Assembly: GCA_958450365.1 (NCBI GenBank)
Contig: CAUEEP010000925.1
Location: 930,001 to 994,000, forward strand
DNA: 64,000 nt
Source of the DNA: Mesorhabditis belari
Taxonomy: Eukaryota; Nematoda; Chromadorea; Rhabditida; Rhabditidae
Reading direction: 5' to 3'
Every line of letters begins with the position of its first letter. Position 1 is the first letter of the stretch. A program made the translations under genes and the position numbers. The notes below the pieces were generated by a model that was given only the letters and a program-made list of their open reading frames with translations, did no database searches and had not been told where the DNA came from. Below are positions 10,801-33,000 of the stretch, one piece after another.

Positions 10801-12431
10801 ATCGTTTTCTAAACACCTTGGCTTATTTGTTATATTTTTTTTATATTTAGACGCATCTCACTGCTCCGATCTTCAGTACATTTTCGGCGACTCGAAGACA
10901 ATCGCTGATTATCCCTATTTCCAGAGCACAATTCTCGGATTCGCCAAGAATGGGTGAGTTGAGAAATATCGTTAAAACTTTATAAATAGTTACAAAGTTT
11001 CGTGTCTTAGTTTCGTGTCTTAGTTTCGTGTCTTAGCTAAGAGAAGATAGTCAATTCGTACAGCATTACTTGATCCTTACATCCTTTACCTTTTCAGTTT
11101 TATTGGACTAGAAAACCTGAAGTGAAAGACTAATTTTGCTAAGTATTATATTGGGTTGGCAAGAAAGTTTGTAAAAAATGTTTGCACGGTGATTTCCGAA
11201 AAGCTAAAACATTTATTTATTCAAGGTAATCGCCATTTTTAAGCATCACACTCTGTTATTTATTGGGCAAAGCGCGAAGCCAGTTTTCGAGCTCAGATAT
11301 CCAAGCTTTCGACCTCAGATGTAGAATGAGATGTCGAAGACATTGAGCAACTTTTGAGGAGTCTCTAAAGAAATAAAAATAAAGCTAGAAAGTAAACGAA
11401 TTTCATTTAAATTGTTCAATATAGGAGCTTTTCAATATTTTAAGCGATCAATAGAAGATCAAGATCAATAAGAGATCAAAGTCAATAGAAGATCAAGATC
11501 AATAAGAGATCAAAGTCAATAGAAGATCAAGATCAATAGGAGATCAAGATCAATAGAAGATCAAGATCAATAGGAGATCAAGATCAATAGAAGATCAAGA
11601 TCAATAGGAGATCAAGATCAATAGAAGATCAAGATCAATAAGAGATCAAAGTCAATAGAAGATCAAGATCAATAGGAGATCAAGATCAATAGAAGATCAA
11701 GATCAATAAGAGATCAAAGTCAAAGAAGATCAAGATCAAAGGAGACAAGATCAAGAGATCAAGATCAACAAGGATCAAAGTCAAGAAGACAAGATCAATA
11801 GGAGATCAAAGTCAATAGAGATCAAGATCAATAGAAGATCAAGATCAATAGAAGATCAAGATCAATAAGAGATCAAAGTCAATAGAAGATCAAGATCAAT
11901 AGGAGATCAAGATCAATAAGAGATCAAAGTCAATAGAAGATCAAGATCAATAGGAGATCAAGATCAATAGGAGAGAATTGAAGTTAACAATCCCTTTTTT
12001 AGCGATTGTCTCTCATGCTCAAAGAGTTAAAGAAATCAGAGACAAAAGTAAGTCTACTGACTTTCTTGCCAACTTAATTTGAACGAATCAGCTACTTGTG
12101 GGCAAAAAGCGTCTCTGTCTAATCACAGTATCGCAACTTTTCCCGGTTACAATTGAAAAAAAGATCGGATAGACTATGTAACAGCAAAGTTAGTACAATA
12201 ATGAATAAATATCTGTGTTGTGTTGTACTAAACTGGTGTTGTACTTGTAATAAATGTTTTACTCGATTACTTTTCCCCTATTTCAGTGCCTATCCGATGC
12301 GTCGAGAGAAGCATCTGAAAGGCTCGCTCGTCTTCAACAATCACCTCCCATTCATCTCCTATTCGAAAGATTTTTGTCCGCGTGCGCGTCGACTCATCGA
12401 CTCATTTCAGGAAAAATCTCCAAAGGTTTAA
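4884..12431 (+). CDS. Secreted carboxylesterase (type-B, COE family), 13 exons, 510 aa
   Basis: Predicted alpha/beta hydrolase that cleaves carboxylic esters, probably secreted. Exons joined in phase: 4884-5042, 6211-6286, 6437-6495, 7378-7534, 8314-8410, 8496-8590, 8665-8762, 8920-9015, 9794-9929, 10315-10496, 10626-10755, 10851-10953, 12287-12431. Residues 1-19 look like a signal peptide. The family motif GVRYGEKPERF is at 42-52, EDCLFLNV at 87-94, and oxyanion motif HGGAY at 113-117. The nucleophile is Ser197 in GQSAG, the acid Glu320 in TSDEW, and the base His432 in HCSDL. The usual EG after the acid is EW here. Cys74 and Cys89 probably form the first family disulfide. Total length is close to the usual 530-560. 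The start is directly preceded by TTTTCAG, suiting trans-splicing. The triad is intact, so the gene is probably active. The substrate is unknown, and it could instead be a neuroligin-like or cholinesterase relative. Confidence 0.9.
5045..5130. repeat. 18-bp tandem repeat in esterase intron 1
   Basis: Four to five copies of gctattgagctatgtgaa begin just after the exon 1 donor at 5043. If the intron were retained, the array would add a short in-frame repeat, but the donor and the family alignment favour splicing. Confidence 0.85.
5285..5690. repeat. Hairpin repeat family, esterase intron 1
   Basis: Two head-to-head hairpins whose arms read 'tttgagctcaaatatcttgg' and its reverse complement, separated by a conserved middle containing 'cgccaagtctttctctgtcg'. 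The same hairpin recurs at 17150-17590 and 24285-25060. It has no coding content and looks like a fold-back MITE family. Confidence 0.8.
6824..7339. mobile_element. Mariner-type MITE, copy A (516 bp)
   Basis: The terminal inverted repeats begin ttgggttggggagaatgag and extend through 'tcggcgcc', with TA on both sides (6822-6823, 7340-7341). It is nearly the same as the 523-bp element at 42030-42552. No transposase is encoded. The TTGGGTTGG end is shared with the mariner relics at 9093, 11151 and 55347, so it was probably mobilised by a mariner transposase. It lies in esterase intron 3. Confidence 0.85.
7979..8059 (-). pseudogene. tRNA-like relic
   Basis: On the minus strand an A-box-like 'ttggcgcagtcg' and a B-box 'ggttcgactcc' flank a disordered middle. 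The T-arm stem (ccggg/cccgg) is intact but the acceptor and anticodon stems do not pair. It lies in esterase intron 4, opposite the similar element at 8178-8250. Confidence 0.55.
8178..8250 (+). pseudogene. tRNA-like relic
   Basis: A-box-like 'gtggcgcagctggg' and B-box 'ggttcgaatcc' with an intact T-arm, but no acceptor or anticodon pairing. With the minus-strand copy at 7979-8059 it forms an inverted pair inside one intron. Confidence 0.55.
9093..9665 (-). mobile_element. Mariner transposase relic
   Basis: It begins with a mariner-like end (ttgggttggtgaa). The minus-strand sense includes HDNARPH (second catalytic Asp) and LAPFDYYLF (third Asp of the DD34D triad). Further upstream, at about 9540-9620, a frame resembles the family segment PKPGLHQEK...VFWD with the first Asp. 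The N-terminal half and the far terminal repeat are missing and the frame is broken, so it is dead. It lies in esterase intron 8. The 28990-29460 element is its close relative. Confidence 0.85.
10000..10150. repeat. Short direct and inverted 'cgcaag' repeats
   Basis: Two direct copies of a block of about 45 bp (acttgcaagctcgcaag...) flanked by inverted 'gaaatttcgcaagatc' sequences. The block lies in the intron after the esterase exon that ends at 9929. Confidence 0.6.
11151..12075. mobile_element. Mariner-like element filled by a satellite
   Basis: The left end ttgggttggcaagaaagt is mirrored on the right by 'actttcttgccaactta', with TA beside the left end. About 250 bp of the left interior resembles mariner remnants, but no transposase motif is readable. 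Most of the interior (11420-11980) is a short satellite. It lies in the last esterase intron. Confidence 0.7.
11420..11980. repeat. 17-18 bp satellite array
   Basis: About 30 units of the type agatcaagatcaatag(g/a), alternating with an 'agatcaaagtcaatag' variant, so a higher-order pattern is visible. Around 11715-11800 several units have lost 1-2 bases. The array is entirely inside the mariner-like element at 11151-12075. Confidence 0.9.
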
Positions 12432-12932
12432 TCCTTTATGGTTTCATGTCTCTCATGTTTTTTGCTTTTTCCATTACGATCTTCGTTTTGCCTTGTTTGA
12501 GCGCTGTTTGAGCCGCCCTGGTGAGCTTTTTTGCGTAAACGAGAGCCATTTGAAGCCATTTGAAGCCCTGGAAATTTAAGAATTTCGAGTTTTTCAGCTA
12601 AATTTCTTGAAAAATTTGCCTAAAGTGTTCAAATTTGAGTTTTATTTGTTAAATTGTTTAAATTTGTTTAAATTTTTGAAAATATAACAAAATTTTGGTA
12701 AAAATGAGAATTTTGCTCTAAATTTGGCTACTTTTTAATCAAAATGGATCTCTAAACCTTCTAATGAACTAGCGCTGGATAATTAACTGAAATTAACTGA
12801 AATTTTTGGTTACTTGGTTAGCTTTTAATGGTCTAAGTGTTCTCTATGTGCACAGCATCTAGCTTATTGCCTACAGCATCTAGCTTGTTGCTTTGGATCT
12901 ACAGCCATTGATGACCAGACTAATCTACACTA

Positions 12933-13153
12933 CTGGACAATGAAATATCATATCTGAAAAAAGATCGTCACTTTCGCGCGTCTGTAACTCCATTGTCTTT
13001 AACATATTTCTAAATATTAATATTACCATTGTGTAGCCCTTGAAAAGAGCTTTCAAAAAATGTATAACACTAATAGTTTAAACTCAAAGACAAGGGAGTT
13101 ACAGACGCGCAAAAGTGACGATCGTTTTTCAAATATGATATTTCATTGTCCAG
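12933..13153. mobile_element. 221-bp hairpin MITE with TA flanks
   Basis: Ends ctggacaatgaaatatcat and its reverse complement, TA on both sides, arms of about 80 bases pairing around an AT-rich centre. This is the Tc1/mariner non-autonomous layout. Confidence 0.85.
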
Positions 13154-13689
13154 TACTGTATTTTATTTTTACTCTAAGCTCTAAGCTTTCACTATTTCCC
13201 TGGGTTATTGTAGCTTTTTAAAAGTAAATCGAAATGTAATCGAAATGTGATCAAAATGTAATTTAGATCTAAAGCTAAATGCGAAATGCATAAATGCAAA
13301 TTTGTTGAACTTGAATGCAAATTTATTGATCTCCACGATGATTCTATTGTAAATTTCTGTGATAAGACAATTTTTACAATTTTGGCTCTATCTTTTTGCT
13401 CTTTTACTGTATCTTTATGGGCTTTTCTAATGTTTTCTAAATGTTTATTACACAAAATAACGTATTTTCTATGTTTTTATCGTTTTTATATTTGCTCCAG
13501 AATAAATTTTCACATTTGTCATCAGTTTTTTCGCAATGAATTAGGGAAAACTGGGGAAATCGCAAAAACATTGAACATTTTGGAAGCCACGCTAAAAATT
13601 GGCGCAAAAATAAGTGAGATCGGGGCAAAGATAGAAATTTTTGAAAATTGTATAGAACTTTTTCATTTTTTGATGAAAACTTGGGAATC

Positions 13690-14008
13690 TGTACAATCTG
13701 TGGGACAAACTGGAGGACAAACTGGAGGACAACCTGTAAGACAAACTGTGAGGACAATCTAGAGGACAATCTGTGGGACAAACTGTAGAACAAACTGTGC
13801 GACAATTTGTACAATAATCTGTAGGACAATCTGTACGACAATCTGTAAGACAATCTCTAGGACAATCTGGAAGACAATCTGCAGGACAAACTGTAGGACA
13901 ATCTGTAGGACAATCTCTAGGACAATCTGGAGGACAAACTGGAAGACAATCTGTAGGACAAACTGTAAGAAAATCTGTACGACAATCTGTGGACAATCTC
14001 TAGGACAA
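13690..14008. repeat. 12-bp minisatellite (gacaatctgtag)
   Basis: About 25 degenerate units of gacaatctgtag, with variants gacaaactgtag and gacaatctctag. The array ends about 50 bp downstream of the endophilin-B stop. Minus-strand reading gives a Cys/Pro/Thr repeat that should not be taken for a protein. Confidence 0.85.
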
Positions 14009-14057
14009 TCAATAATTTACAGTAGCTTGGGGCAGTTTTTAGAAAACCGAGTTTTTT

Positions 14058-14691
14058 TCAAAGAATCTCCAAGTATGAGATCGGCACTTTCCCCCGACTT
14101 CCACCCTTTTCGGCCATCACGAATTCGGGATCCATCCCGGGGAGACGGTAGACGATCAAGATCTGCAATTTGACGAATAAATAGTGATCTTGGTCTTAAA
14201 GCACGTTCCAGTACAGTAACTGATTGATAAGCTAAAGAACTCACATCATTCTCCTTTAACAGTGATCTCACTCGGCAACACCGCATCGTAATCCATCAAA
14301 ACGCGAGCTTGTTTCGTGGACAAATCATCCGGGTCCATTGACTGAAAATGATAGAGCATCTGGCTACTTTATGTGAGCCTAGCTTGAAACAGAACTGGTT
14401 ATAAACCATTGTAGTTTATACAGTTGACTCTCGATATAACGACTCTCGATAAACAATTCTCGATATAACGATTTGGTCGATAAGACGACTTATACCTACA
14501 GTCCAGGCCAAGTGCTTAAAAAATAAAAAAAAAAAAATTTTTTTAAAAAAATTTATTTTATAAAAAATTTTAAAAAAAAAGGGGGTTTAAAAAAAAAAAA
14601 TTTAAAATAAAAAAAAATTAAAAAAAAAAATAAATATAAAAAAAAAAAAAAAAAAAAAGAGGGGGGGGGGAAAAAAAAAAGAAAAATAGAT

Positions 14692-15049: not shown

Positions 15050-18000
15050 ATTTTTTTTTTAATTTATTATATTCTATTTAATTTGTCTACTTTTTCGTTT
15101 AATTGTGTTATTTATGAGTCTATGAGTCGTCTAATTTGTTTAATTTCTCGTCTTTCTCATCTTTTTCATTTTTTTCGTCTAATTCTTTGAATAAACGATG
15201 TGTGAAAGATCAAAAAAGTGAATGGATTTGATAAAAATAAAGACAAGATTACGGTAGAAAGAGGACAAAGAAAGAAAAATGCTTAGAAAAAGTGCTTTTT
15301 ATACTCACTTTTCCCGCTCCAGGCATCGATCCTAGCGATTTCCCGAAAGTATTCGTCACAAGGATTTGCGCGTTTCCAAGAGAAAGTGTTCTGAAAAGTT
15401 GAAAATAAAATTTTTACAGAAAATTTGGCACCACGACAGTTTGAGCCACTTTTTCTGGGGTATTTTTATGCGTAGATTTTGAAAAACGAAACGAGAACTT
15501 AGGAAAAGGCGTTTTAAGCCGAGTTTCGGCGCTTCGGGGCTTCTGTTTTGTACTTCACCTTCTATAGTCCAAGTTATCGCCTATTAGGGCACTTTTCAAG
15601 CTCAAAACTAGAGCCAAAACCCTTTTCAGTCACTAAAGATTCATTTTCTAACATAAATTAACTCGTAGAAACAAAAGAAATTGAAAAAATATTTTTTGAG
15701 ATTTTGAATCATGTGGGGGACCACATGAAAATTTTTTATTTTTCTGCTATTATTCTTATTTTTTTTTTATTATTTACATTTTTATTTATTCAGAAATGTA
15801 ATCAGTAGTTGAAATTATGCCAGAAGAAGTGTTTTTGAGTTTAAAAGATATTTTGAGAGTCCGTGTTTAGACCTCTTTCCTATGTGTACCCATCACACTG
15901 AGCACGCACTTTGGAGCCCTAAAACTCCGCTTCAAACGCATTTTCGCAACTTCTGGTTGTGTTTTTCGGAATCTACGCATAAAATTACGTTAGAAAAAGT
16001 GGGTTTAAAGAGAAAAAGTGGCTTCCAACTGTGGTAGTGCTAAAGATTTGACATTTTGTCAGTTTTTTTAGCTTTTCGAGTTGCATTTTTATTTTTTTTT
16101 AAGCTCGATTTATTTATTTTCTCTCAGGCAAGACCAGATTTTTGTGTTTGAATGAGGAAAAATTTCAAATTACATAGTTAATTTCACTTTAAAATACAGT
16201 AAACCCGATGAAGATATTGGGGAAACTCTATTTGGTGAACTTTTGGTAGCCAAATCATAATACAAATCAAAATACGACGATTTTTCAATGCAAAAACACT
16301 CGAGAAACCGAAAAAATTGCAAAGCTGGACCGCAGCGCACAATTTTGAACTACACAGAAGCACCACATTGACCGAATTGCACGCGGGTTACGGTAAGTTG
16401 AGTTTGACTTGAGAAATCGTGGATTTTTAAAACATATCGATAAATTAACAATGCCATTTGCAATTCTGGCACGCACATCACGATTTGAAAAGATATTCAG
16501 GCAAGAATTGCAATCTAGAATCAAGAGATTACTGTAGCTCTTTAAAAAGTAGACAAAATTGAGTTAAATCGAAAACGCATTGAACAAAAAGTAAATTCTG
16601 GATGTCATTAAAAATTTTGAGCCAGGTTTGGGAAAAGATTTCGGAATTTAAGAATCACTTGCTGTTGCAAACTGTTGCACAACTTTAGAAACCGAAAATC
16701 AACTTCAAATCAAAATCGTTAGCACTAAATGAAAATCTGGAGAGCACAGCACAGTTTGGTGAGTAATTGGGAATCATTGTCGCGGAGAGTTGAAGGCTGA
16801 ATCGTCGTGGCCCGAGTACAGCGAGATGCCAGAGTCGGCGGAGAGGGAGCTGAAAATACAGGCAACGGTATCGAGCACAATCGAAACTCTGGCTATCACG
16901 AGACAAGACTACGAGAGTTTTAAAGGCCAACTGAGAAAATTGGATTGCGTCAATCTCTACCGTTGTTCTGCACTCACCCCGAAAGTTCTCGCTGCAAATC
17001 GGCCATGTGTTGATGTGCTTGGGCGAAGAAGGACATCTGAGCTTCGACAAAGTCACGTAAACATTTGAGTTGACCGTTCTGCAAGTTAGAGATTGGATAT
17101 GCAAAGGTATTAAGGCCAGATGGCTCCAGAATGACTCTAGGGCAGGGTTATCAGACATTTGATACACGCCCCGCCCCCTTTGTCCTTAGCAATCCAACTT
17201 TGAGCTCAAGTATCTTGGTGTTGGTGTGTTCAATTTCGATATTCTTGGTGTCATTAGATGCGCCAAGTCCTTCTCTGTCGATTGGTACAAAAACTATTTC
17301 AATTGAACAGCCCAACACCAAGAAATTTGAGCTCAAAATTAGATTGGCAAAAGGGGCGGGACCAGAAAGACCTTTTATACACGCCCCGCCCCCTTTGCCA
17401 TCGGCAATCGAACTTTAAGCTCAAATGTCTTGGTCTTGGGCTGTTCAATTTAAATGGTTTTCTTACCAATCGATAGAAAAAGACTTGACGCATCTAATGA
17501 TACCAAGAACATTTAAATTGAACAGCCCAAGACATTTGAGTTCAAAGTCAGATTGCCAATGGCAAAAGGGGCGGGGCGTGTATCAAATGTCCCACAATCC
17601 TAGGAACAGGCTAGGTTGGAACCTGGCTTAGCTTTAGAAAAGTTATGGCTGTAGCCTAGCCTTGTTAGAGATGTTCAAAAACAGACCTGGCCTGGCTTTG
17701 CTATGGTTTAGTCTTAAAAAATAGCTAAAGCGTGACTTGGACTTGGCTCACAAGCCCTAGAATTAGGGCTTGTGACTAGAATTCTGACCATCTTTAGGTC
17801 CAGAGCCAGGTGAATGGTCAAAGTTAAGTCGACTTCTAACCAAGGCTAATTTACAGGGTACGTGAAAAGTTCTGTCCCCTCTTAAAAGGCTTTTACGATG
17901 TTTTATGAAGTTTCCTATTTATCTTCTATCTTTCATATCTTTTACTCAGATATAAAATTTTATAATTTGATAGAACTTTTCATGACAACATTTGAGGTCT

Positions 18001-21000
18001 GGTCGCAGGCCAAAATAGCTTTCCTAGCTTCGTAGCAAGTTAGAATTTGATATTTTCGTATTCTTGACTTTAGCTGGTACCTTAGATAATTGAATATCTT
18101 GACTAATTGTAAAGAGCTACAAAGGGGGATCAATTATCAGGCGGTAAATTTACAAGGATACGAAAATATCAAATTCTAACTTGCTACGAAGTTTCCCCGA
18201 CAATTAATGTAATTGTTACATCAAAAGCATTTGATTATTTGATTATTCATTACTTTTATGACTTCTTTAACCTTTTCCCCTCCAACTTACATGTGCCGTT
18301 TGTATTCCCTCAAGCAAAAGCTTTGTGATCTCGGCCTGTTTATCGAATTCGGCTTGTGCCACTCGCAAATCGGCTTCCGCCTAAAAGACACCCATATTAC
18401 AGTAAACTTGATTATGGTAGTACAAATTGGCCACTTCATTTGTATGGAGCACTTTTAAGAAAACGGAAACCATTCTATGCACGATTTTACACCACTACAC
18501 AATTTTTTTTACCTGTTCCACCGTAAAACCGCCAGTGGTGCGGCTGTTTCCCTAAATATTTTAATGCTCATGAAATTTTTAGAGAATTTTGGGAGTGGGA
18601 CAAATGCGACCTTTTTTTTCCGCACCTTGCCCACTAGCGCACCTTTTTTCGCGTTTTAAAAAAGCTCTAAAAAGCTAATATCAGAGCGTGTGGAACCAAT
18701 TTGAAAGACAAAACGGCTGGGTCAAATTACAGAAAATTGTCGATTTTTCTCTTTGTATAACTCCGTCCGTTTGTTTCCACAAGCTCTGATATGTCAAAAT
18801 TTCGATTCTACGCCCTAAAATCACCTAGAAAAACAACTTTTGGAATAGAAATTGGTTAATATTACTTTTTAGAGCTTCTTTAAAACGCGAAAAAAGGTGC
18901 GCTAATGGGCTAAGTGCGGAAAAAAAGGTGCGAAAATGTCCGGGTGCGCAAAAAAAAGGTCGCATTTATCCCACTCCCAGAATTTTAGCTTTTTTTAGCT
19001 TAATGCCTTTTAGAAAGCGACTGACCGCTGTCTGTGTTTCCATTGTTTTCGCCTTTTTCAGCCGACTCTTGCACGCGTCCAGGTCCAAACGCTTGCTCTG
19101 CAGCACTTTTCGCTCTTTCTGAAAATATTTCGCATTTTAATTGAAGAAAATTGACCAACTTTTGAAATTTCTAAGCAAAAACAACTTTAGAAAAAATCAA
19201 TGCTTCCGATTTTGCAACAAGTTGGCCTTATTTCAAATTTATTACCAAGCAACGAGTATTCAGCTAATCAGCTGAATATTCTTTTTAAGGAAAATTTTTT
19301 TTTTACTATAAAGTCCCGGATTAGATATTCTTCCTTATTCTTCAAAACTTTCATTTTTTAGCCGATTTTCAGTTTTATTGATATTAGAGTTGTTAGTTTG
19401 TTCCAAAATCATATTTTGATTAGTTTCATTTCAAATCAAAAACGAAACAGCTCCCAAATCGAGGTTTTCGTGTAGAATGCTGAGTAATACACATCAAAAT
19501 CCTTTGAAACTGCGTTTTGTTGAAAACTTTTGCTGCGTGAACGGCTAATTTCAAATTTCCTTTGATGGATAGCTTTTAAAACCGAGCGAATCTCCCTTTT
19601 TGTTCGAAACTTTGCGAAACCATCACAAAATTAGTAAAACTTTGAACTTTTTGTGCGAAATGTTGTCGAGTTTTGCTTTCTCTTTCTTTGTTTTTATTGC
19701 AATTAGATCTAATTTTTTTTTTTTCAGGAGATGTCGTCAAGTCCGAGTGACTGCACGTATCTACAGGAAAAATTGGACGAGTACATGCCTGGATCGCCAA
19801 TTTTTGTCGCTCCGCCCGCCTACGAGCATGTGCCGAAAAGTATCTTCGTCGGTGGACTTTCGCCTGAGGTGGTGTTTGCTATAAAGTTCAGTGCTACTAA
19901 AGTCTGTCGTGTGGTGACGACAATATTTTGCAGCCATAAAGATTTGAACGGATCAACTTTTGAAAGATTTTGCACTCAAAGATGGTGCTTAATTGACCGT
20001 TGAAGAAAAGTTTGGGAAAGGAAAATTGTTAGCACTGAGGCAGTTTTTTCCAAAATGTAGTTTTTCTAGGGTAACTGGTGGAGCTGATCACGAAAAAACA
20101 TGTTTAAGATGTTTTCAATTAAAAAACATATATTGGAGTAACACCTCGGCCGTATGAGAATTAGGCGATAGCCTAGGAGCCACGTGCTTCCGGGACGAAA
20201 CTCACATCAGCCCTAGGAGAAACAGGCTAGCCTGGGTAGTGCGGTCGCGGAGCCAAAGCCTAGAAAAATGTAGGTGCCTGACTAATACCCAACCCAACGA
20301 CCCTCTTAAGGGCCACAAACTACCCAATATAACGGCAATGCATGTTTTTTAATTGAAAACATAACTTAAAAATGTTTGTTTTCGTGATCAGTGTCATCAA
20401 TTACCCTACAAAAACTACATTTGGGAAAATTTAGAGTGCCCCAACCGCCCTAGCACCAAATTGTTTGTAGAATGTTCAGAGGGGCTAACGATTACAAATT
20501 TTCTATCGGTAACACAATTAGATTTGGTCACGTTTAGAACCTGCTTAATATACCACAAGATCTGTAAATTTGCTTCCAATCATGGCATTAATGTTTTAAA
20601 TTTAGACTAGCGAGGAGGATCTTCACAAAGCCTTCCTCGATTGTGGAGAAATCAGGAAAGTAAAGATCATTCGTGAGCAAGACGGAACATCCAAGGGTTT
20701 TGGATTCGTCGAGTTTTTGCTAATGACAAGCACGGAGGCCGCCCATAGTTTGGTGAGCACTTTGATGGATTTAACGATGTGAAACAAGTTGAAAAAGGCT
20801 TGTATCGCGAAATTTGCGTTGATGGTTGGTAATTGATCAATTGATTGATAAAACAATCTTTTAGCATCTTATTGCTTGTCACAGAAGGAGTGAAGCTTTA
20901 GTTTATGGTTAGAAATTTGATCCAAAAGCTCCATCAGGGCAACTTCTTGAAGGAAAATCGAGTTTAAATGGAGAAAGTCTGCGTGTTTAAAACAACCCTA

Positions 21001-24000
21001 TTAGAGACTGACACATAGAAACCCTTTAAAGTGTCAATATCCAAAGTGGCGGATGGCTTGTAAATGACTTACACTCACAATTTAACCGATTAGTCTATTG
21101 ATGTTAAACCAGAATAATTTTATTTTTAGAGGGCTCGAGATCAAATTCCTGAAATCAAAGGACGTCAAGTGAAGATTGGAGACGCGTTTCACCGAGTCTA
21201 CACTTATCCGAAAGCTGATGGTGCGTTAACGTTTCTCCACTCTGTAGCCGTTTTTCCTTTTAGATTACAAAGTTGCGACGAAAGGGAAGATCGTGTCAAA
21301 CGAGGGATACAAGTACTTCTTTCCGGCTCCACACCCCTACATGCTGATGGGACTTCCGTCACCAAGCGCATTTGTTGTTAGCGACCCGAGCTCCCAGAAG
21401 ACACCAGCAGAACAGCAGAATGCATGGAGAAGTGAGACAAGATTTTGTTGTACCTAATTGTGTTATTTAGGCAGAAGTGACTTCACGAATGCTTTCCCAT
21501 TGTTGCCGACGAAGAATTTCAATCAACATCAACCGCCGACACCCATCACAGCTCAGAATAACAACGGGTCAAGTGTATTCGATTATGGACAATCAATGGC
21601 TATGAAGAATTATGTGAGTTTTGATGTTGTTGTAGCTAAATCAGGGTATAAAACATCTGGGTACTGTGGCGCAAGTATTTGTTTTGACTAGACAATTTGT
21701 ATTTTTAGGATTATGCTTCGTTGGCGGCTTATCAACATTATTTGGCAGCAACATCGGCACAACACTCTGGCCTTTATCCCCCTGCTCACTACTTCTCATC
21801 ATCGCAATTAGAAGAGATGCGACGCCGCGCTGGATATCAGCACATGCCCAACTACGACTACCCAGCCAACAACAACTCGTCTATGGGACGGCTCACCGAC
21901 AAGTACGCGCGCATGGGATTGAGCAACTCCTCAAACACTAGAATCTCCTATTCGGCCAAGGTATGTTCTTTGCTCAGGTATCATCATGTTTCTTGATTAG
22001 GTGAGCGGCTTTGGTACGCATCGCAATGAGCGTCACAAAAGTCCAGCTGATGGAGATTATGCACACTCAGCGAAGCATGGAACTGAGGTAAGAGCTGATT
22101 TTTAGAGAAATTTATCAAGTAAATCCTGTTTCATTACTCTGTAATCACTTTTGTTTAGATTGGTGCCGGTGACTCTGCTCCTCGTCACGGTGGTCGCAAC
22201 AGCAATGAAAGTCGTCCACAACGTCAGCAACATCATCGACAACAAGAGCGCAGAGAGGAGAAAATGATGACCCCGCCAGCCACTCCAGCGGCAAAAAGCA
22301 ACGAGGAATAAGTTAGATATCACCCCCATTTATTCTATTGTCAACTTTCTTTCGTAAAATCGTTACTCTAGGCTATTTCTGATAATGTTTTTAGATGTCA
22401 TTTCTCACCATTGTCGTTTGCTTCGTATCTTGGTCTATACATTATTCTCTTCATCAATCCCTCATCGCTTTTCTTTTCTAATTGGCTAGTCTTGACAAAT
22501 TCCTAGTTTGTTATCACTAATAATGTCGTTCGTTGTTTTTCTTTCATTTCCTTCACTTCGTCGAGATTTCTTTAATAATTGGTGGAATTGCTTCGGCGGT
22601 TTGCCTGTTGTTTTCAGATTTCTACCATGGCTTTCATCAATTTATTGTTATTTCTTGAAGCACTCGGAATTTTGCGTGTTTTTGTCCACTCGTGGACCAA
22701 TTGCGGTCTAATAAATCTATTTTCACAAGAAAGTTATCTAGGATCTCTAGTTGGGCTCCAGCTTTTCACAAACCTGGATCGTCCGCATGTCTCCTTCGAG
22801 AAATCGTCGAATTGGTAGCAGGGTGTGGCTGGCGGATTGGGCGACGAATTCTTTCTCGGTTTGGCCGATCTTCTGCTCAGTTTGTGCAACTTTTAGCAGC
22901 GCGGTGCCTAGAGTTAGAAGTTATAAATGTTACATTTGTAATTGCTGGACTTGGGCTTCTTAATCAGACTGGGAATTTTGCTAATGGCGACACGGTCTTC
23001 ATACAAACCGTATGGTGTCGACGGTCCAAATTCTTCCCCCGCCTCAATCATCGTTTGTGCCAAATGCTCGAGATTATTCATGCGTCCATTGTCCTTTTTC
23101 AGATCGAGTTTCTCGTAGAAGACCTCTTCCATACGAACGGCTGAAATTTGGAAATTTTCATCATTGATTTCGGACCCCTTTAGCCTCAATTACTCTTATC
23201 AACAAGATATTCCACATGCAAATTGAGCCTTCTCCCCTTGGAAATATCACTTCTCGAAGCTATTCAAGGGTGGATCCAAAAAAAAGAGAGCAACTTTTCT
23301 TTTTCCATCACTCGTCATCTTTTCCCCTTTTTTTGGCTTCCATTAGTGAGAACGCCCCCGGGAGAGATTTCCCCTAAAAGATGCTCAAACATGGCGAAAA
23401 AATGCACACATTTGGACTCGTCTCTCATTTTTCACCCCCTTTTTTTCTTCTTTTCCAACATTCTCTCCTGGAAAAGATCAATAGAGCTCTTTTTTTGACC
23501 TTTTTGGCCTTTTTGGGCTTTTTGGCCTTTTTGAGCCTTTTTGCTAGACTCTCTAAAGCTTTCTTCGACCCTGAAATCAGTAAAAACTATAGGTTTAGTG
23601 CTAAAATATTGGCTCTGAGAAAGCCAAAAGCCGAATTTTTACTTTTTTGGTTATGCTAGAGCTTTTGCAAGTGCTGCAAGTGATAAATGACCCTAAAATA
23701 GGTTTGTAAAAGCTAAAGCATTGAGCATATCCATAGTTCAAATTGTAAAAAGCTTTCGCGAGTACTGAGGCTTATGTGGAACATTTTAAAGACAAGAAAG
23801 TTATCGGGGAAAGCACACTGGTAACAGGGGAAATAGATCTATCAATATGAACGCTCAGGAATTTGTCAAACTAATCCAGCTCAACAAGCAAACCAGCGGT
23901 CCTCCAGCTGACTCCAGGCCAGCGATCCTTCAGCTGACTCTAGGGCCGAGTCTAGAGGCCAGGTTTAAGCCTGATACTTGGCAAACCCAAACCCAAACCC

Positions 24001-25285
24001 TCCAGCAAGCTAGGTCAGAAACTGGTTCAACACTTTTTTTGAAAACTTACTTGGATTTGGTTGTAGATAGCTCTCGATACAACTCAACAATTTCCTCGTG
24101 TGCTCCTCGGTTTTGTCGGCTCTCAAGAGAAGCGCCTCGAAGTGTGGATCCAACTCGGTGCGCTCGGCTTTCAGAAAAGTCTCCTCGGTGTACTGAAATC
24201 GAAAACTTTTTGCACATTAGCCTAGCAGGCTTACTTGAAAATTACCGTCTGTTACTTATCGTCTAAAATTAGGTTTATCGGACGTTTGATACACGCCTCG
24301 CCCCCTTTTGCTATTGTCTAACTTTGAGCTCAAATATCTTGGTCTTGGGCTGTTCAATTTAAATGTTCTTGGTATCATTAGATGCGCCAAGTCTTTCTCT
24401 GTCAATTGGTACAAGAATCATTCAAATTGGACACCCCAACACCAAGATACTTGAGCCCAAAGTTGGATTGGCAAAAGGGGAGGACCAGAAAGAACTTTTA
24501 TACACGCCCCGCCACCTTTGTCCTTGGCAATCTAACTTTGAGCTCAAATATCTTGGTGTTGGGTTGTCCAAATTTAATAGTTTTCTATCAATCGACAAAG
24601 AAAGACTTGGCACATCTAATGATACCAAGAGTATTGAAATGGGACAGCCCAACACCAAGATATTTGAGTTCAAAGTCAAAGTTCAGGTCAGGCTTTAGGT
24701 ATTTTTTGAGTCTAAACCATAGCAGAGTCAGGTCAGGCATGTTTTTAAACATCTCTAACAAGGCTAGGCTAAGGCTAGGCCAGGCATAACTTGTCTAAAG
24801 CCAAGGCAGGTTCGAACCTAGCCTGCTCCTCTCTGACCTGGGATTGTGGGACATTTGATACACGCCTCGCCCCCTTTTGCTATTGTCTAACTTTGAGCTC
24901 AAATATCTTGGTGTTGGGGTGTCCAATCTAAATGTTCTTGGTATCATTAGATGTGCCAAGTCTTTCTCTGTCGATTGGTACAAAAACTATTGAAATTGGA
25001 CAGCCTGACACCAAGATATTTGAGCTCAACGTTGGATTACCAATGGTAAAGAGGTGGAAACGAACCAGGATCCAGTAAGAGAAAAAGTATTCAGCCGACA
25101 AAAGTCAATGTTAATTTTTGCAAAAATTACTGTAATCAAATCAGATATTGGACTTTACAGCATTTTAAGACTATCTAGCAACAATTATCTAACTTAAACT
25201 TCTTCCATTTGAAATTCCCCACCTGTTTCGCGCGGCTGAAAAAACCGCTCGCATCGCTGGCCATTTTCTTTATGTTGAAGTCCAT
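14058..25285 (-). CDS. erp-1: Endophilin-B (N-BAR and SH3), 12 exons, about 369 aa; 2-nt deficit in SH3 exon
   Basis: Membrane-curving protein of the SH3GLB/endophilin-B family, acting on Golgi, autophagic or endosomal membranes. Exons in transcript order: 25285-25223, 24192-24051, 23140-23009, 22907-22774, 19118-19026, 18551-18513, 18380-18291, 17078-16978, 16849-16820, 15390-15309, 14341-14245, 14162-14058. N-terminal amphipathic helix MDFNIKKMASDAS, then BAR motifs FTEET-like, EEFGPSTPYG, KRLDLDACKSRLKKA and LKCLRDFVEAQM. The SH3 starts ARVLMDYDA and ends GKVPISYLEIL. Length matches SH3GLB1 (365). The 39-nt exon 18551-18513 lies where vertebrate SH3GLB1 has an optional insert. Exon 14341-14245 has 97 nt where phase demands 99: 'gagatcactg' seems to lack two bases of the family ELSL codons, so the SH3 is frameshifted as read. 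If the exon starting at 16849 is not spliced at 16820 it reaches a stop near 16777, giving an SH3-less form. The gene symbol is by C. elegans analogy. Confidence 0.85.
14518..15060. repeat. A-rich low-complexity block
   Basis: About 540 bp that is almost only A, with scattered T and runs of G (e.g. 14660-14668). It lies in the endophilin-B intron between exons 15309 and 14341. Such composition is unusual even for this AT-rich window and may be an assembly or long-read consensus artefact. Confidence 0.8.
15430..16050. repeat. Fold-back repeat in endophilin-B intron
   Basis: Imperfect inverted arms: 'gccactttttct' with 'tatgcgtagattttgaaaaac' on the left against 'ttttcggaatctacgcataaa' and 'agaaaaagtggc' on the right, around an AT-rich centre. 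The 'tctacgcata' motif is also in the fold-back at 1733-2172, suggesting related elements. Confidence 0.65.
17150..17590. repeat. Hairpin repeat family, endophilin-B intron
   Basis: Same family as 5285-5690: arms containing 'gagctcaaatatcttgg'-type sequence and 'aacagcccaacaccaag', repeated head to head, bounded by 'cgccccgccccctttg'. Non-coding. Confidence 0.8.
18592..18978. repeat. Fold-back element, 387 bp
   Basis: The left edge gggagtgggacaaatgcgacc is exactly mirrored by ggtcgcatttatcccactccc, apart from one base. Poly-T blocks and 'gcgcacc' motifs match the fold-back at 1733-2172. It sits in the endophilin-B intron between the KRLDLD exon and the 39-nt exon. Confidence 0.85.
19731..22311 (+). 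CDS. daz-1: DAZ/BOULE-like RRM protein, 8 exons, 392 aa
   Basis: Predicted cytoplasmic germline mRNA-binding translational regulator of the DAZ family. Exons: 19731-19868, 20606-20752, 21130-21220, 21264-21431, 21471-21613, 21709-21960, 22001-22087, 22159-22311, all in phase to TAA. One RRM spans about residues 34-125: RNP2 SIFVGGLS at 37-44 and RNP1 KGFGFVEF at 76-83. It ends GRQVKIGDAFHR, like the DAZ signature G(K/R)xLKLGPAIRK. The tail is rich in Tyr, Asn, Gln, Pro and Ser, then basic and His-rich at the C-terminus, as in DAZ proteins, though no clear DAZ repeat is seen. A TTTTCAG acceptor lies 3 nt before the ATG. The whole gene lies in the intron of the opposite-strand endophilin-B gene between 22774 and 19118. 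It could instead be another RRM family such as Musashi or hnRNP; DAZ fits best by the end of the RRM. Confidence 0.78.
20050..20430. repeat. Fold-back with GC-rich structured core in daz-like intron 1
   Basis: Arms of about 90 bp (20051-20140 and 20335-20430) are reverse complements, sharing 'tgatcacgaaaa' and 'caattaaaaaacat'. Between them about 190 bp (20145-20333) is far more GC-rich than its surroundings and holds small hairpins such as taggc-gata-gccta (20161-20174) and ccctcttaaggg (20300-20312). No open frame is evident. Identity unknown. Confidence 0.7.
24285..25060. repeat. Hairpin repeat family, three hairpins
   Basis: Three members of the family at 5285-5690, bounded by 'gatacacgcctcgccccctt'. 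Two lie at 24285-24690 and one at 24850-25060, separated by a 'ggctaggctaagg' low-complexity stretch. Located in the first endophilin-B intron. Confidence 0.8.
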
Positions 25286-25739: not shown

Positions 25740-25805
25740 TCAAAACCTGTGCGCCGCCGGGACTCGAACCCGCGACCTTTCCCTCGCTAACCAACCAACC
25801 GCGAC
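25740..25805 (-). pseudogene. tRNA-derived repeat, minus-strand copy
   Basis: On the minus strand 'ggttagcgaggg...ggttcgagtcc' ends in cggcggcgca, followed by a tail shared with the next copy ('aggttttgatctg', 'ttggccagcatagttct'). Together with 25890-25990 it forms an inverted pair of a tRNA-derived SINE-like repeat. Confidence 0.6.
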
Positions 25806-25889
25806 CAACTGTGCTAACTATTATCTCCTTACTTCAGAGCTCTTTATCCCCTTACTTCAGAGCTCAGTAAGCGACGAAGCGAGCGGACG

Positions 25890-25990
25890 AAGTAAAGACG
25901 GTAAGCGTAAGATCGCGGGTTCGAGTCCCTGCGGCGCACAGGTTTTGATCTGCTCTAGGTTCAACTCTTTGGCCAGCATAGTTCTAGACT
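25890..25990 (+). pseudogene. tRNA-derived repeat, plus-strand copy
   Basis: B-box ggttcgagtcc, end gcggcgcacagg, and the same tail 'ttttgatctgctctagg' plus 'ttggccagcatagttct' as the minus copy at 25680-25805. A shared non-tRNA tail after the tRNA-like head is the SINE layout. Confidence 0.6.
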
Positions 25991-26159: not shown

Positions 26160-26245
26160 AGTGCGTTGTGGTTAACATAGTTGCTAGGTAAGCGAAAGAT
26201 CGCGGGTTCGAGTCCCGGCGGCGCACGAGCTTTTGATCTGCCCTA
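26160..26245 (+). pseudogene. tRNA-derived repeat, third copy
   Basis: Head 'gtgcgttgtggttaacatag', B-box ggttcgagtcc, end cggcggcgcac, then 'gagcttttgatctgcccta', as in the two copies upstream. The acceptor stem does not form a full seven pairs. Confidence 0.6.
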
Positions 26246-28156: not shown

Positions 28157-28989
28157 AACTTTGATTTTTTTTTTCTGGGTGTGCATCGACGTAACCACTG
28201 GAATCCTAAGAAAACTGACGAAATATCTGAAATTGCTCTGCTCCAAATTGTTTATGGGTGATAGAAAGTAAGTTTAATATATTTTCTCGTTTTCCCAGTT
28301 GAAAACAAATTAGAGTTCATAAATAAACTAAGATTTTTAGTCGGAACACTGTATTCATCATAAGATAGCTATTATAAGAGTACTTAAGAGATTCGCAACA
28401 TAAGAGTATATAAGGGATTAACTGTATAAGAGTGCATAAGAGATTTTCAATTCGCTTTTTTAAAGAAAGAGAACTTTAAGTTTACCTATAGTTTTGTAAA
28501 TTCTTGTAGTGAACTCCAAAAGAATGAGCCTATGAAAAGTGGAATGACATTTACGACATCATCTACTTTTGTAATATAAAATTGAATTCAAAAATAGAAA
28601 TTTGATAACAAGTTATTCATTAAAGATCAATTTTTTTATGCAATTTGCAAAAGTGAACAAAGGAAACTGAAATTATTGAGAAATCGTAGACAAACGGATT
28701 AAGATTTAAAGGCAAAAAAATAAGTTCAATGGTGGTTTTGTTGAGGGAAGGAATGTGAGGTGAAAAGGGGATCAATAGAGAAGAAGGGGTACGGTGGGAG
28801 GAGCGGGGGATAGGGCCGACAGGGAAAGGCAAGAGTCGACGGGGAGACGGTCACCTTGGTTACCTGGATAAACAGAGGGAAATCAAGGACATTGTAAAGC
28901 TTCAAGATTTTAGTTTTAGTATACTGTTTATTGCTTTGATCAAAGTGCTTTTGTTGGCTCATCGTGTAAGGGAGGACCCTGAGCTTGTT

Positions 28990-29838
28990 TTATTGTTTTA
29001 TAAAACTGCTAGACTTTGAACTAAAATTTATTCAACATAAAACCATGAATTGATTCCAAATAATTTCCATTATTATTGACGATTTCTGCCCATTTTACAG
29101 CCAATTTGCGGATTTTTCTTTCGTAGTAGGATGTTGGTTTTGAATCGAAAAACTTTCAAAGCCAATTTTTGACTGCTTCTTCCGAATCGAAGTGTTCTCC
29201 CGCAAGCTCATTACTCATGATCCGGAATAAATAGTAATCAAAAGGGGCGAGGACTGTATGCGAGATGCGCCAAAAGTTCCCAAACAAGGCTGTTTCTTTT
29301 AGAGCAAGTCAGTTTTGCGACATGAGGACGCGCGTTGTCGTGGAGGAGAACGATCTTTGACTTGGAGGGCCTATTCTTCTTTAGGGATTCATTCACCTTT
29401 TTATTATTATTGACGACTTCTGCCCATTTTAAAGGCAATTTGCGGATTCCTCTTTCGTAGTAGGATTTTGGTTTGTGTGTTAGACAAGTGTGAGACTCAA
29501 AAATGGAGGACTCCCAGTTTGAGCACTTTCTTCAAAAGAAACCCATTTTGGTGTCAATAGAAAAGTTGTAGAGAATCAAAAAGTAGGCTTATAGCCAAAT
29601 TTTCAAAAAGATACACTTAGTAGTTTCGCTTAAAATGCAAGTTTTGTGAAAATTTGGCATCTCTTTCTTAAATTTGGCATTTCTTGAAAACGAGTTTTTG
29701 AATCGTTCTGAAAATCTGGATATAAGCTTCATTTTCGATTCTCTACAACTTTTCCATTGACACCAAAATGGGTTTCTTTTAAAGAAAGTGCTCAAACTGT
29801 CACATATGACAATAGCCGGCAGTTTTCAATTCACCAAC
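28990..29838 (-). mobile_element. Mariner relic, second copy of the 9093 family
   Basis: Plus-strand 'aaaatttattcaacataaaacc' and the minus-strand frame with VNESLKKNRPSKSK and HDNARPH are close to the element at 9093-9665. The right end 'ttcaccaacccaa' at about 29823-29835 is the mariner terminal repeat. Part of the transposase is repeated at 29402-29460. A hairpin (29513-29800) sits between transposase and terminal repeat. Inactive. Confidence 0.8.
29513..29800. repeat. Hairpin nested in mariner relic
   Basis: 'gtttgagcactttcttcaaa' followed by 'cccattttggtgtcaat' is mirrored at 29755-29800 by 'attgacaccaaaatggg' and 'aaagtgctcaaac'. Arms of about 75 bp. Confidence 0.8.
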
Positions 29839-30080
29839 CCAATAGATCAGGAAACAGGAGCCTGGTCCTGCCCTGAAGGCTCAGGCTTAGGCTCAAAATT
29901 GTTCCAACTTGTTCCAGCTACCGTTCCCTTTAGGCTTAAACTTTAAAAATCTCGATTTTAGTTGATTTGCAACGAGCTTTTCACACTTTTTCCATTATTC
30001 ACTAATTCTAAGTCGAAAATTTTATGTCTACTTACTTTTCTACTGTCTACTTACTTCTCTACTTTTCAGAAAATCTAAAA

Positions 30081-33000
30081 ATGCGCCTAAAAACTCTGCA
30101 ATCAAGTGTGGCCCGGCACTCAGATGCGGTTTGTGCTGTGGGGTGAGTTGAAAAAACTGAATTGACCAATTTGATTCAAAAAAGTGATATAGAAGCGTCA
30201 TATCCGGCTTCTTTAAATAATTGTTCACGACAGAAAGTGTGCTCTGATTCGTTCTCTGATTCGCTTGACTCTGCTTGACGTGTCGCTTTGCGTTTTGGCT
30301 TGTCGTTTTGACCCTTTTCGTAGTGTAGAAAGCTTGGTTCGACTTGCTATTTTCTAAAGATTATAAAATTGTGTTAAAATTATTCTGGTAACAAAAAGTA
30401 AGATGCAAAAAGATTCATAAAAATTAAAGTGAACATGTGAAACGCTCGTTTTCGATATTTTATTCGTTTTTTTTTACCTAAATTCGCAAAATTATTAAGC
30501 AATTTATTGATTCTAGAATTTTTTCGATGCGCTCTTTTGAATAAAAAAGATTTCGAACAGTAGCATGCTGATGATTTAAGATATTTCGATTTTCTTGAGT
30601 GAACTTATCAATGTGAAACGCACTGTAGTTTAGTTTGATCAACTCCGGGATAAAAATGACTTTAATTTGATGACTGACTTTAAATTGAAGAAAATCCAGT
30701 GAAATCCAATGTTCTTTTATATTTCAGTTGGTCATCGAGTGATGAAATGGTCTCCTGTTCGGATGATCACACGTTTCTCAAATGGAATCTCGTCACAATG
30801 GAGGCAACAAAAGTCACCAATTTGGCTGAGTGAGTTTTGGAAAGATTTGAAAAGATTGAATTACTGTAACTTTTGTCTACGGTTTACGGTAACTGGGGCA
30901 TGCTTTAGAGTGGCTTTAGCTTTAGGGCAGGCTTCAGAGTGGCTTTAGCTTTAGGGCAAGCTTCAGAGTGGCTTTAGCTTTAGGGCAAGCTTCAGAGTGG
31001 CTTTAGCTTTAGGGCAAGCTTCAGAGTGGCTTTAGCTTTAGGGCAGGCTTCAGAGTGGCTTTAGCTTTAGGGCAGGCTTCAGAGTGGCTTTAGCTTTAGG
31101 GCAAGCTTCAGAGTGGCTTTAGCTTTAGGGCAGGCTTCAGAGTGGCTTTAGCTTTAGGGCAGGCTTCAGAGTGGCTTTAGCTTTAGGGCAGGCTTCAGAG
31201 TGGCTTTAGCTTTAGGGCAGGCTTCAGAGTGGCTAAAGTTTTACATTTAGCACTACCTTTCCCACCTCGATGTCTTGGTTTCCGCGTTCGTTGACAAGAG
31301 GCGGAAATGATGTTTTAGCGTTGACCTCATCGGATGGTTTGGTCTTGATTTTTGTGAAATTAATCACTCAAATCTATCTAGGAAAACTGCACTTGATCAC
31401 TCGTAACGGGAAAATCGAGAAAACCGTCGACGCGCATCGGGGAGCGGCGTTGAGTGCAAAATGGAGCCACGACGGGACTGGGCTGATCACTTGTAAGTGA
31501 GAATTGAACAAAACTGGTTTTCGAGTGCAAACATATTCTTTCTGGCACACACACACGCTAAGCTTGCTAAACGCTTGCTTGCTAAATAAACGAGCTCTGT
31601 ACTTTGTGCTCCTGTAAACTGCAGGCTTCCTGGTGCACTGAAGTGACTTGGTAGTGGAAGAAAAACCATGAAAATTAGTGCACTAGAAGAGATGTGTTTG
31701 CACAAAATTTGAGCCCATTTCTATATTCAGGGTGAGCTTTCAGGTGGCGAGGATGGCGCGGTAAAGATGTGGTCACGGCAGGCGATGCTTCGGAGTGTTC
31801 TCGCGCAGTTCGCCTCGCCGATCTATTCGGCTGTTTGGGATGGAAGTGCGTCGAGAGTGTTGTACGCATCCGAGGACACTTGCTATATTAAAGCGTTGAA
31901 GACACAGGTAAGTGCGAGATCGAGGATAAGTCAGGTCCTGGGTCTGGCTCTGGCTTTTGCACTAATCGAGCTTGTGCCTGGCTCTGGACACGGATCCTAG
32001 GGAACAGCCGGAACAGCCTTGATCCAGACATGAGCCCAAAACAATACCTGGGTAGTTTGGCTTCCCTGGTCTGGCTTTGCGGCTTAGGAAGAGTTCAAGA
32101 ACTGATTCAAAAGAGCTCTTGAGGCTAGACCTGGCTTCTGGTCGGATTCTGGCCTGGGCCATTATCATACAGTGGTCCACAAAAGTAATGCCCCATTGCC
32201 ATCCAAAAGTATCGCACTTTTGTTGCACTTCGCAGAAATTTTGTTCAAAACATCTTTGAAGATATATTTCTTTCCTTTTAAAATACTATAAGTATTCTAG
32301 TTTTTGAATATCTAGTTTTTTTTTGATTGAAATCTTTCCAATCAAAAGTTCGATGTGGAAGAGGGCATTTACCCCTGAAATTAGCTCCACAAAAGTAATG
32401 CCCCATTGATGTTTTCTTTAATTATTCTCTTTATTTTTGCGTTCTATGAACATTAAGTGTATTCTATTTTATTATTTAGTTGGCTGGCAAGAAGAATATT
32501 GATACTCCGGAGAAGCTCAAAATCGCCAAGGCTCGGGAAAATGGGATGAGGGGAAAGGATGTGGCTAACCTCTTCAATTGCTGAAGTTGTGGCTAACCTC
32601 TTCAATTGCTGAAGTTGTGGCTAACCTCTTCAATTGCTAAGGATTTGGCTAACCTCTTCAATTGCTAAAGATGAGGTTAACATCTTTAATTGCTATAGAT
32701 GTGGCTAACCTCTTCAATTGCTGAAGTTGTGGCTAACCTCTTCAATTGCTAAGGATTTGGCTAACCTCTTCAATTGCTAAAGATGAGGTTAACATCTTTA
32801 ATTGCTATAGATGTGGCTAACCTCTTCAATTGTTCGATATGGACGGTGCGCCGCATCCTTTCTCATTCAAAAGTCAGCGGAAACCTTTATCGAGGCCTCA
32901 AGAGTGGCCGACCTCCAATCACAACTACAAAAGAAGATCCAGCCGTGATCAGAATCGTAGAAAACAATCCGAACAAAAAATCAACCGATGAAAACCAAAT

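What the first reader, a model, noticed from the sequence alone, without database searches (positions are those of the whole stretch)
18513..22907. DAZ-like germline RNA-binding gene nested in an endophilin-B intron, on the opposite strand
Endophilin-B exons end at 22774 and resume at 19118 (minus strand) in phase, and an 8-exon, 392-residue DAZ/BOULE-like gene (plus strand, 19731-22311) fits entirely between them. Antisense transcription through the whole nested gene by its host could couple germline and somatic expression or generate double-stranded RNA in a nematode.
Basis: partly seen in the sequence, partly recalled or inferred. Interest (0 to 1): 0.75.

Follow-up and report, generated by a model that had tools for sequence, protein, structure and literature searches.

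The report
Germline gene nested inside endophilin intron
In a soil nematode, a gene of the DAZ fertility family sits whole inside an intron of the endophilin-B gene on the opposite DNA strand; such nesting is common in worms, but this appears to be the second, more divergent DAZ-type gene of a species that makes females without using the father's DNA.

Summary
The window is Mesorhabditis belari. Endophilin-B (minus strand, 11 exons, 25285 to 14058) has a 3655-base intron (22773-19119) whose flanking exons join in phase inside the conserved BAR domain (TIQ|KERK). All eight exons of a 392-residue single-RRM gene (19731-22311, plus strand) lie inside it; the protein equals a public M. belari prediction. 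A second contig, read here as the other haplotype, has the same arrangement. The only plus-strand AATAAA between the nested stop and 23700 (at 22710) lies 64 bases before the host exon, so the mature mRNAs probably do not overlap. Opposite-strand nesting is ordinary in worms (567 pairs in C. elegans; PMC12274878).

New here: the genome holds a second, more canonical DAZ/BOULE-type gene (contig C625) with eight exons, similar intron phases and the same C-terminal TPPATP. The nested gene is therefore a divergent DAZ-family paralogue, probably moved as DNA, not by retroposition. Most likely the two genes run as independent units, with germline transcription of the nested gene possibly causing a short, SL-spliced endophilin-B transcript starting at 19118, as ceh-10 does to polq-1. 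Transcription, conserved nesting and dsRNA could not be tested.

The parts
25223..25285 (-). endophilin-B exon 1 (MDFNIKKMASDASGFFSRAKQ)
   Evidence: identical in C68
24051..24192 (-). endophilin-B exon 2
23009..23140 (-). endophilin-B exon 3
22774..22907 (-). endophilin-B exon 4, ends ...MRTIQ at the donor of the nest intron
19119..22773 (-). host intron 4 (3655 bases) that holds the whole nested gene
19026..19118 (-). endophilin-B exon 5 (KERKVLQSKRLDLDACKSRLKKAKTMETQTA); in-frame ATG at 19043-19041
   Evidence: 19026 as exon end agrees with public protein P0075
18513..18551 (-). endophilin-B exon 6 (GNSRTTGGFTVEQ)
18291..18380 (-). endophilin-B exon 7
16978..17078 (-). endophilin-B exon 8, end of the BAR domain
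15309..15390 (-). endophilin-B exon 9 (linker)
14245..14341 (-). endophilin-B exon 10 (start of SH3); this copy differs in length by one base from C68, and the one complete reading of the window's copy found stops this exon earlier, at 14261
14058..14162 (-). endophilin-B exon 11 with stop (SH3 end)
19119..19712 (+). inferred promoter/outron region of the nested gene, between host exon 5 and the acceptor
   Evidence: inference from position only; no promoter test done
19713..19727 (+). T-run plus CAG acceptor, three bases before the ATG with which the public model also starts: candidate spliced-leader trans-splice site
   Evidence: sequence; trans-splicing inferred
19731..19868 (+). nested DAZ-like gene exon 1 (ATG at 19731; RNP2 SIFVGGL)
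20606..20752 (+). nested gene exon 2 (RRM core, RNP1 SKGFGFVEF)
21130..21220 (+). nested gene exon 3 (RRM end, VKIGDAFHR)
21264..21431 (+). nested gene exon 4 (DYKVATKG...GYKYFFPAPHPYMLMG, similar to the C625 paralogue)
21471..21613 (+). nested gene exon 5
21709..21960 (+). nested gene exon 6
22001..22087 (+). nested gene exon 7
22159..22311 (+). nested gene exon 8 with stop (C-terminal MTPPATP shared with paralogue)
22710..22715 (+). only plus-strand AATAAA between the nested stop codon and 23700; 64 bases before host exon 4
   Evidence: the variant AATAAT also occurs at 22519 and 22574
20046..20460 (.). repeat-family element with inverted arms inside intron 1 of the nested gene
   Evidence: 145 match rows in the own genome; apart from the two whole-gene copies the rows lie within about 20044-20471 (40 of 135 candidates scored)

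Best explanation
This is an opposite-strand nested gene pair in Mesorhabditis belari. SHOWN by sequence: a complete 8-exon gene for a single-RRM, DAZ-family-like protein lies within intron 4 of the endophilin-B gene; both gene models are conserved, and the arrangement is present on both contigs that carry the locus; the genome holds a second, more canonical DAZ-type gene (C625) with a similar exon plan. INFERRED: the two contigs are haplotypes; the nested gene is a diverged DAZ-family paralogue that reached the intron by DNA duplication or relocation. It is transcribed from its own promoter in the ~0.6 kb between host exon 5 and its ATG, receives a spliced leader at 19727, and ends near 22710. 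Endophilin-B pre-mRNA runs antisense through it and the whole intron is spliced out, so mature mRNAs do not pair. The two genes work mainly as independent units. The likeliest interaction is one-way: when the nested promoter fires, divergent transcription makes a short host RNA that begins in the intron and is SL trans-spliced at 19118 (exons 5 to 11), mostly as a by-product.
For: Gene models and join. Public M. belari proteins: P0001 equals the nested protein, and P0075, on a contig of the length of C68, joins the exons on both sides of the nest intron. Endophilin-B1 (6up6) aligns at 272 bits, endophilin-A type chains at no more than 48.6 bits. Second contig. DAZ family: of the 60 PDB rows shown (194 matched), DAZL has the highest score among chains that I judge to be single-RRM (40.2 bits, next 38.2) and covers the whole RRM; the C625 paralogue scores 61.7 bits to DAZL over its whole RRM, the next chain judged single-RRM 41.9. 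Paralogy: 121 bits, 100 of 371 positions identical; outside the RRM 60.8 bits against a shuffle maximum of 29.3, 0 of 200 shuffles reaching it; intron order and phase equal at 6 of 7 junctions (C625 model made by hand); the own-genome search with the nested protein found C625 also from the region after the RRM (residues 126-181, 24.1 bits, E 0.0014). C625 is M. belari DNA: a ~1.15-kb element in it matches 39 other places at 88-91%, C701 included. No exon overlap. One-way induction is the measured behaviour of ceh-10/polq-1 in C. elegans (PMC12274878).
Against: No transcript data of any kind. With mouse Dazl as query, a PABP-like exon of the same genome scores slightly above the nested protein (36.9 against 35.5 bits), and in an exon-by-exon genome search the nested locus ranks ninth and tenth of 18 rows, C625 fourth. 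Several multi-RRM chains have higher summed scores than DAZL. Pfam finds only a generic RRM. The searches for relatives of the nested protein returned itself and seven RRM proteins, none a named nematode orthologue, and only itself when restricted to the RRM. The SL site and promoter are read from sequence alone. The later C625 junctions were chosen by eye to keep the frame, so their phase agreement is partly by construction.
Confidence: 0.8

Rival explanations
1. Functional antisense coupling, the first reader's idea: host transcription through the nested gene silences it in soma, or the two RNAs form double-stranded RNA that feeds endogenous siRNAs.
For: Geometry permits it: the whole nested coding region is antisense to host pre-mRNA. 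Nested pairs in C. elegans are on average coexpressed less than neighbouring pairs, which those authors read as probable avoidance of transcriptional interference (PMC12274878).
Against: No exon-exon overlap is predicted. The intron is normally spliced in the nucleus (general knowledge). I found no sequence feature that marks a dedicated mechanism, but none was searched for beyond 3' UTR motifs and polyadenylation signals.
Confidence: 0.12
2. The two halves of endophilin-B are separate genes, so nothing is nested.
For: A public M. spiculigera model (P0091, 157 aa, partial) ends exactly at ...MRTIQ, and the M. belari model P0075 starts late, at MIEAGEEF.
Against: The break falls inside one BAR domain; 7 of 7 relatives read that extend past it are continuous there; P0075 itself crosses the intron; the SH3 end lies on the same strand downstream. 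Truncated models are expected where an intron holds another gene.
Confidence: 0.03
3. The nested gene is not DAZ-family but another single-RRM protein, and the likeness of both genes to DAZL is general RRM likeness.
For: Marginal scores of the nested RRM: PABP-like exon 36.9 against 35.5 bits with Dazl as query; ninth rank in the genome search; several multi-RRM chains score above DAZL by sums over domains.
Against: Paralogy with C625 outside the RRM and in exon plan, and C625 is clearly DAZL-like (61.7 bits; printed single domains of the two chains ranked above it reach 32.2 and 25.3 bits).
Confidence: 0.12

Closest known systems
Opposite nested gene pairs of C. elegans, in particular ceh-10 inside polq-1 (PMC12274878)
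   Same: A developmental gene lies inside an unrelated host gene on the other strand; a nested promoter inside the host lies upstream of later host exons in host direction.
   Different: There the nested gene acts in neurons and the host in the germline; here the expected roles are reversed (by analogy with C. elegans daz-1 and erp-1). Induction of the host was measured there and is only predicted here. ceh-10/polq-1 nesting was found in all six nematodes those authors looked at; conservation is unknown here.
DAZ/BOULE family (human DAZL and BOULE, Drosophila Boule, C. elegans DAZ-1)
   Same: One N-terminal RRM with recognisable RNP motifs, a low-complexity tail, RRM split by introns; shares its exon plan with a more canonical DAZ-type gene on C625.
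   Different: RNP1 and the end of the RRM have drifted (TSKGFGFV; VKIGDAFHR instead of the KLGPAIRK of DAZL); no DAZ repeat recognised; germline role not shown.
Endophilin-B / ERP-1 (C. elegans P0049; Endophilin-B1, PDB 6up6)
   Same: N-BAR plus SH3, 272 bits to Endophilin-B1; TIQKERK context.
   Different: Hosts another gene in intron 4; has a short insert (GNSRTTGGFTVEQ) that C. elegans P0049 lacks but C. angaria P0011 and Auanema P0009 have in similar form.

Membership tests
Opposite nested protein-coding gene pair | one gene wholly inside a single intron of the other | tested here: met
   exons 19731-22311 within intron 19119-22773; AATAAA at 22710 also inside; true transcript ends unknown
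Opposite nested protein-coding gene pair | opposite strands, both protein-coding and conserved | tested here: met
Opposite nested protein-coding gene pair | both genes transcribed, host transcript spliced over the nested gene | not testable with these tools
   no RNA data; only gene predictions P0001 and P0075
DAZ/BOULE family | a single RRM near the N-terminus | tested here: met
   Pfam RRM_1, one stretch, residues 38-92
DAZ/BOULE family | RRM closer to DAZL/BOULE than to other RRM families | tested here: inconclusive
   DAZL leads the chains judged single-RRM by 2 bits; a PABP-like exon is slightly better with Dazl as query; the C625 paralogue is much closer to DAZL
DAZ/BOULE family | RNP consensus PNRI(V)FVGG and DRAGV(I)SKGYGFV(I) (PMC2904765, passages read) | tested here: inconclusive
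   PKSIFVGG and EQDGTSKGFGFV: close but not identical
DAZ/BOULE family | RRM exons split at conserved junctions | tested here: inconclusive
   junctions shared with the C625 paralogue; published junction positions were not seen as text
DAZ/BOULE family | DAZ repeat (24 residues rich in N, Y, Q; described as more divergent, PMC2904765 passage) | tested here: inconclusive
   no Pfam match beyond RRM_1 at E 0.001; whether that library holds a fitting repeat model was not checked
DAZ/BOULE family | germline expression and function | not testable with these tools
   known for C. elegans DAZ-1 (PMC9846511, passages read)
Endophilin-B | BAR domain closer to endophilin-B than endophilin-A | tested here: met
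   272 bits against at most 48.6 bits; Pfam BAR 189.5 bits on a 210-residue part model
Endophilin-B | C-terminal SH3 | tested here: met
   exons from 14341 to 14061 match P0075, whose precomputed Pfam rows include PF14604 and PF07653 (SH3 by recall)

The most novel reading that the evidence does not exclude
M. belari kept two DAZ-type genes, the divergent one inside a broadly expressed membrane-trafficking gene. Germline firing of the nested promoter makes a germline-only, SL-spliced short endophilin-B (exons 5 to 11, first in-frame ATG at 19043) that lacks the N-terminal half of the BAR domain, so that DAZ output and a germline endophilin isoform are wired together. The nested DAZ copy may be specialised for the gynogenetic oocyte programme of this species.
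Probability: 0.15. Interest if true: 0.6.

Novelty: new member of a known kind. Interest (0 to 1): 0.36.

Why it matters
Nested opposite-strand genes are common in worms, so the arrangement itself changes little. What adds value is the second DAZ-type gene. C. elegans has one, daz-1 (that it is the only one is recalled), which is needed for oogenesis and proposed to act in the sperm/oocyte switch (PMC9846511, passages), while M. belari females arise by gynogenesis (PMC7433073, abstract). Two diverged DAZ-type genes in such a species give a concrete candidate for how its oocyte programme was rebuilt, and the locus makes 'does a nested promoter switch on its host in the germline?' a one-read test: spliced leader joined to 19118.

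Tried and rejected
Conserved nesting in other nematodes: not testable. The protein search gives no positions; contig lengths were considered as a linkage proxy, but the searches with the nested protein returned no named nematode orthologue to compare. A search for papers naming both daz-1 and erp-1 found none in the held library; F56D1.7 occurs in 1 paper, which was not opened. That C. elegans daz-1 lies on chromosome II and erp-1 on X is recalled, not tested (the 17,718,942-base contig of P0049, fits X as recalled).

DAZ orthology by exon-wise genome search: hard to read, because an RRM split over exons scores low; whole-RRM comparison and the C625 paralogue were used instead. PUF and GLD-1 motifs in the predicted 3' UTR: none for TGTNNNAT and TACTMAC, one ACTAAY at 22516, four TTT(C/G)TTT; not used. 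Six minus-strand AATAAA in the host intron were not followed. Contamination as source of C625: rejected because it shares an element at 88-91% with 39 other places (40 of 1077 candidates scored) and has similar base composition (GC 0.377 against 0.384). No structure was predicted, since RRMs fold alike.

Pieces of what looks like another gene shortly upstream of the C625 DAZ gene on the same strand were looked at once; one weak Pfam row below its cut-off (12.8 against 27 bits), so no family was assigned.
Full report
WHAT IS THERE. The window is part of a 2,006,742-base contig (C701) of a 207.6-Mb assembly. The nested protein is identical to a public Mesorhabditis belari prediction on a contig of that length. 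On the minus strand lies an endophilin-B gene: exons 25285-25223, 24192-24051, 23140-23009, 22907-22774, 19118-19026, 18551-18513, 18380-18291, 17078-16978, 15390-15309, 14341-14245 and 14162-14058 (for exon 10 see below). Its BAR domain aligns to Endophilin-B1 (PDB 6up6) at 272 bits and to endophilin-A type chains at no more than 48.6 bits. Intron 4 (22773-19119, 3655 bases) splits the BAR domain between TIQ and KERK; the join is in phase, and TIQKERK is contiguous in 7 of 7 relatives read that extend past it (9 proteins fetched). The public M. belari endophilin-B P0075, itself partial at its start, also joins these exons. On the plus strand, within that intron, eight GT..AG exons from 19731 to 22311 encode 392 residues with one RRM; the script counted 56 open splice combinations, and this is the one that equals the public model.

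SECOND CONTIG. C68 (235,246 bases) has the same locus. The nested gene is identical over 2581 of 2581 bases. All 8 nested exons and 9 of 11 host exons match exactly; exons 9 and 10 of the host differ. In exon 10 the window's copy differs in length by one base; P0075 is the reading of C68, and the one complete reading of the window's copy found ends that exon at 14261. An assembly slip or an allele are both possible. I read C68 as the other haplotype: PMC10456839 (passages) describes parts of an assembly of this species that were not merged because the two alleles differ.

NESTED GENE IDENTITY. Among the 60 rows shown of 194 PDB matches, DAZL is the best chain that I judge to be single-RRM (40.2 bits; RBM11 38.2, mS86 36.9, CIRBP 36.7), aligned over the whole domain. 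Several multi-RRM chains have higher summed scores; where single domains were printed they reach 31.5 bits, for the rest the single-domain score is unknown. With mouse Dazl as query over the fetched loci, a PABP-like exon scored 36.9 and the nested protein 35.5; with a recalled human BOULE RRM, the C625 exon scored 42.6, the nested protein 40.9 and a SUP-12-like exon 38.5. In the exon-wise genome search with Dazl the nested locus is ninth and tenth of 18 rows. So by itself the assignment is only probable.

THE PARALOGUE. That comparison led to contig C625 (35,623 bases). A gene there, 18623-20177 on the plus strand, reads as eight exons and 354 residues in a model made by hand. Its RRM (MPNRVFVSGF...LSKGYAFVTY...LKVAPAYRK) matches DAZL at 61.7 bits over the whole domain; the next chain judged single-RRM has 41.9. 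It and the nested protein align over 371 positions with 27% identity (121 bits, composition correction off). Outside the RRM the score is 60.8 bits against a shuffle mean of 19.2 and maximum of 29.3 (0 of 200 reach it). Junction order and phase agree at 6 of 7 introns, exon 2 is 147 bases in both, and the third junction splits the same aspartate codon; the junctions after the fourth lie in poorly aligned parts and were chosen to keep the frame, so they weigh less. Both end in TPPATP plus a short charged tail. In a search of the own genome with the nested protein (23 rows), C625 was the only place, apart from the two copies of the nested gene, that matched beyond residue 111 (residues 126-181, 24.1 bits, E 0.0014). 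C625 carries an element shared at 88-91% with 39 other places, C701 included (40 of 1077 candidates scored), and has similar GC and 4-mer make-up, so it is this genome. A 501-base probe of the gene (18500-19000) found no second copy. No M. belari protein but P0001 was listed, so this gene may be unannotated. Retained introns argue for duplication at the DNA level, not retroposition. Neither gene's orthology to C. elegans daz-1 could be tested.

HOW IT MOST LIKELY WORKS. Shown: position, exon structure, family likeness. Inferred: the nested gene has its own promoter in the ~0.6 kb between host exon 5 (19118) and its ATG; a run of T and CAG three bases before the ATG is typical of a spliced-leader acceptor (recalled). 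The only plus-strand AATAAA between its stop and 23700 is at 22710, 64 bases before host exon 4, so the two mature RNAs should not overlap. Host transcription runs antisense through it. In C. elegans, erp-1 promoter GFP is seen in many tissues (PMC6010539, passages; [quoted passage not shown] If that holds here, the genes may run largely in different cells. The best-measured interaction known to me in a nematode is one-way: ceh-10 transcription goes with a short polq-1 transcript that starts at the nested gene (PMC12274878; sections 6, 10, 13 and 14 read). A similar geometry exists here, and a transcript starting in the intron would meet the acceptor before 19118 without an upstream donor, which in nematodes favours spliced-leader addition (recalled principle). 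This predicts SL joined to 19118.

HOW ORDINARY. C. elegans has 567 opposite nested protein-coding pairs, 5% of its protein-coding genes. PMC2330155 (passages) reports that worm overlaps are about 12 times fewer than its random model expects, that nested ones are the preferred kind among them, and that conservation over long distances is poor. One such pair in a 64-kb window is unsurprising. No paper of the held library names daz-1 and erp-1 together, and a search for DAZ family, nematode, duplication and boule gave 4 papers, none of whose titles or listed abstract starts reports a nematode duplication; most subscription papers are not held.

VERDICT. Observation confirmed; regulation by antisense or dsRNA not supported by the sequence; new member of a known kind, with a second DAZ-type gene as the more interesting by-product.

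Noticed in passing
G000:C625:18623-20177 (+), loci L028/L029: Second, more canonical DAZ/BOULE-type gene of M. belari, eight exons and 354 residues in a hand-made model; a 501-base probe finds no second copy.
   Followed up: yes
window 17000-24500 against C68: 9 differing columns between the two contigs here, against 118 in 12255-14525 and 144 in 28359-31234: a tract of near-identity around the nested locus, perhaps gene conversion.
   Followed up: partly
window 14245-14341 (-): Host SH3 exon 10 differs in length by one base between the two contigs.
   Followed up: partly
M. spiculigera P0091: Public endophilin-B model of a sister species stops exactly at the nest junction (...MRTIQ, 157 aa, partial), as if its intron 4 also confused gene prediction.
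   Followed up: no
window 20046-20460: Repeat with inverted arms in intron 1 of the nested gene, found at many other places of the genome.
   Followed up: partly
window 47936-48892, 56243-57427, 62265-63458 (+): Three long open frames of one family (MA(D/E/G)LPVEMPNLLKFPM... and close variants), a local tandem family, F-box-like by eye only.
   Followed up: no
window about 29020-29400 (-): Remnant with HDNARPHVAK, a Tc1/mariner-like transposase motif (recalled).
   Followed up: no
window about 25740-25960 and 26190-26230 (-): Repeats with GGTTCGAGTCCC or its reverse complement, a tRNA B-box-like motif, suggesting tRNA-derived SINEs (recalled); ARAGORN finds no tRNA gene in the window.
   Followed up: no
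window 30896-31234 and 11446-11974: Tandem repeats of 29 and 34 bases; the first matches C68 in several shifted registers.
   Followed up: no
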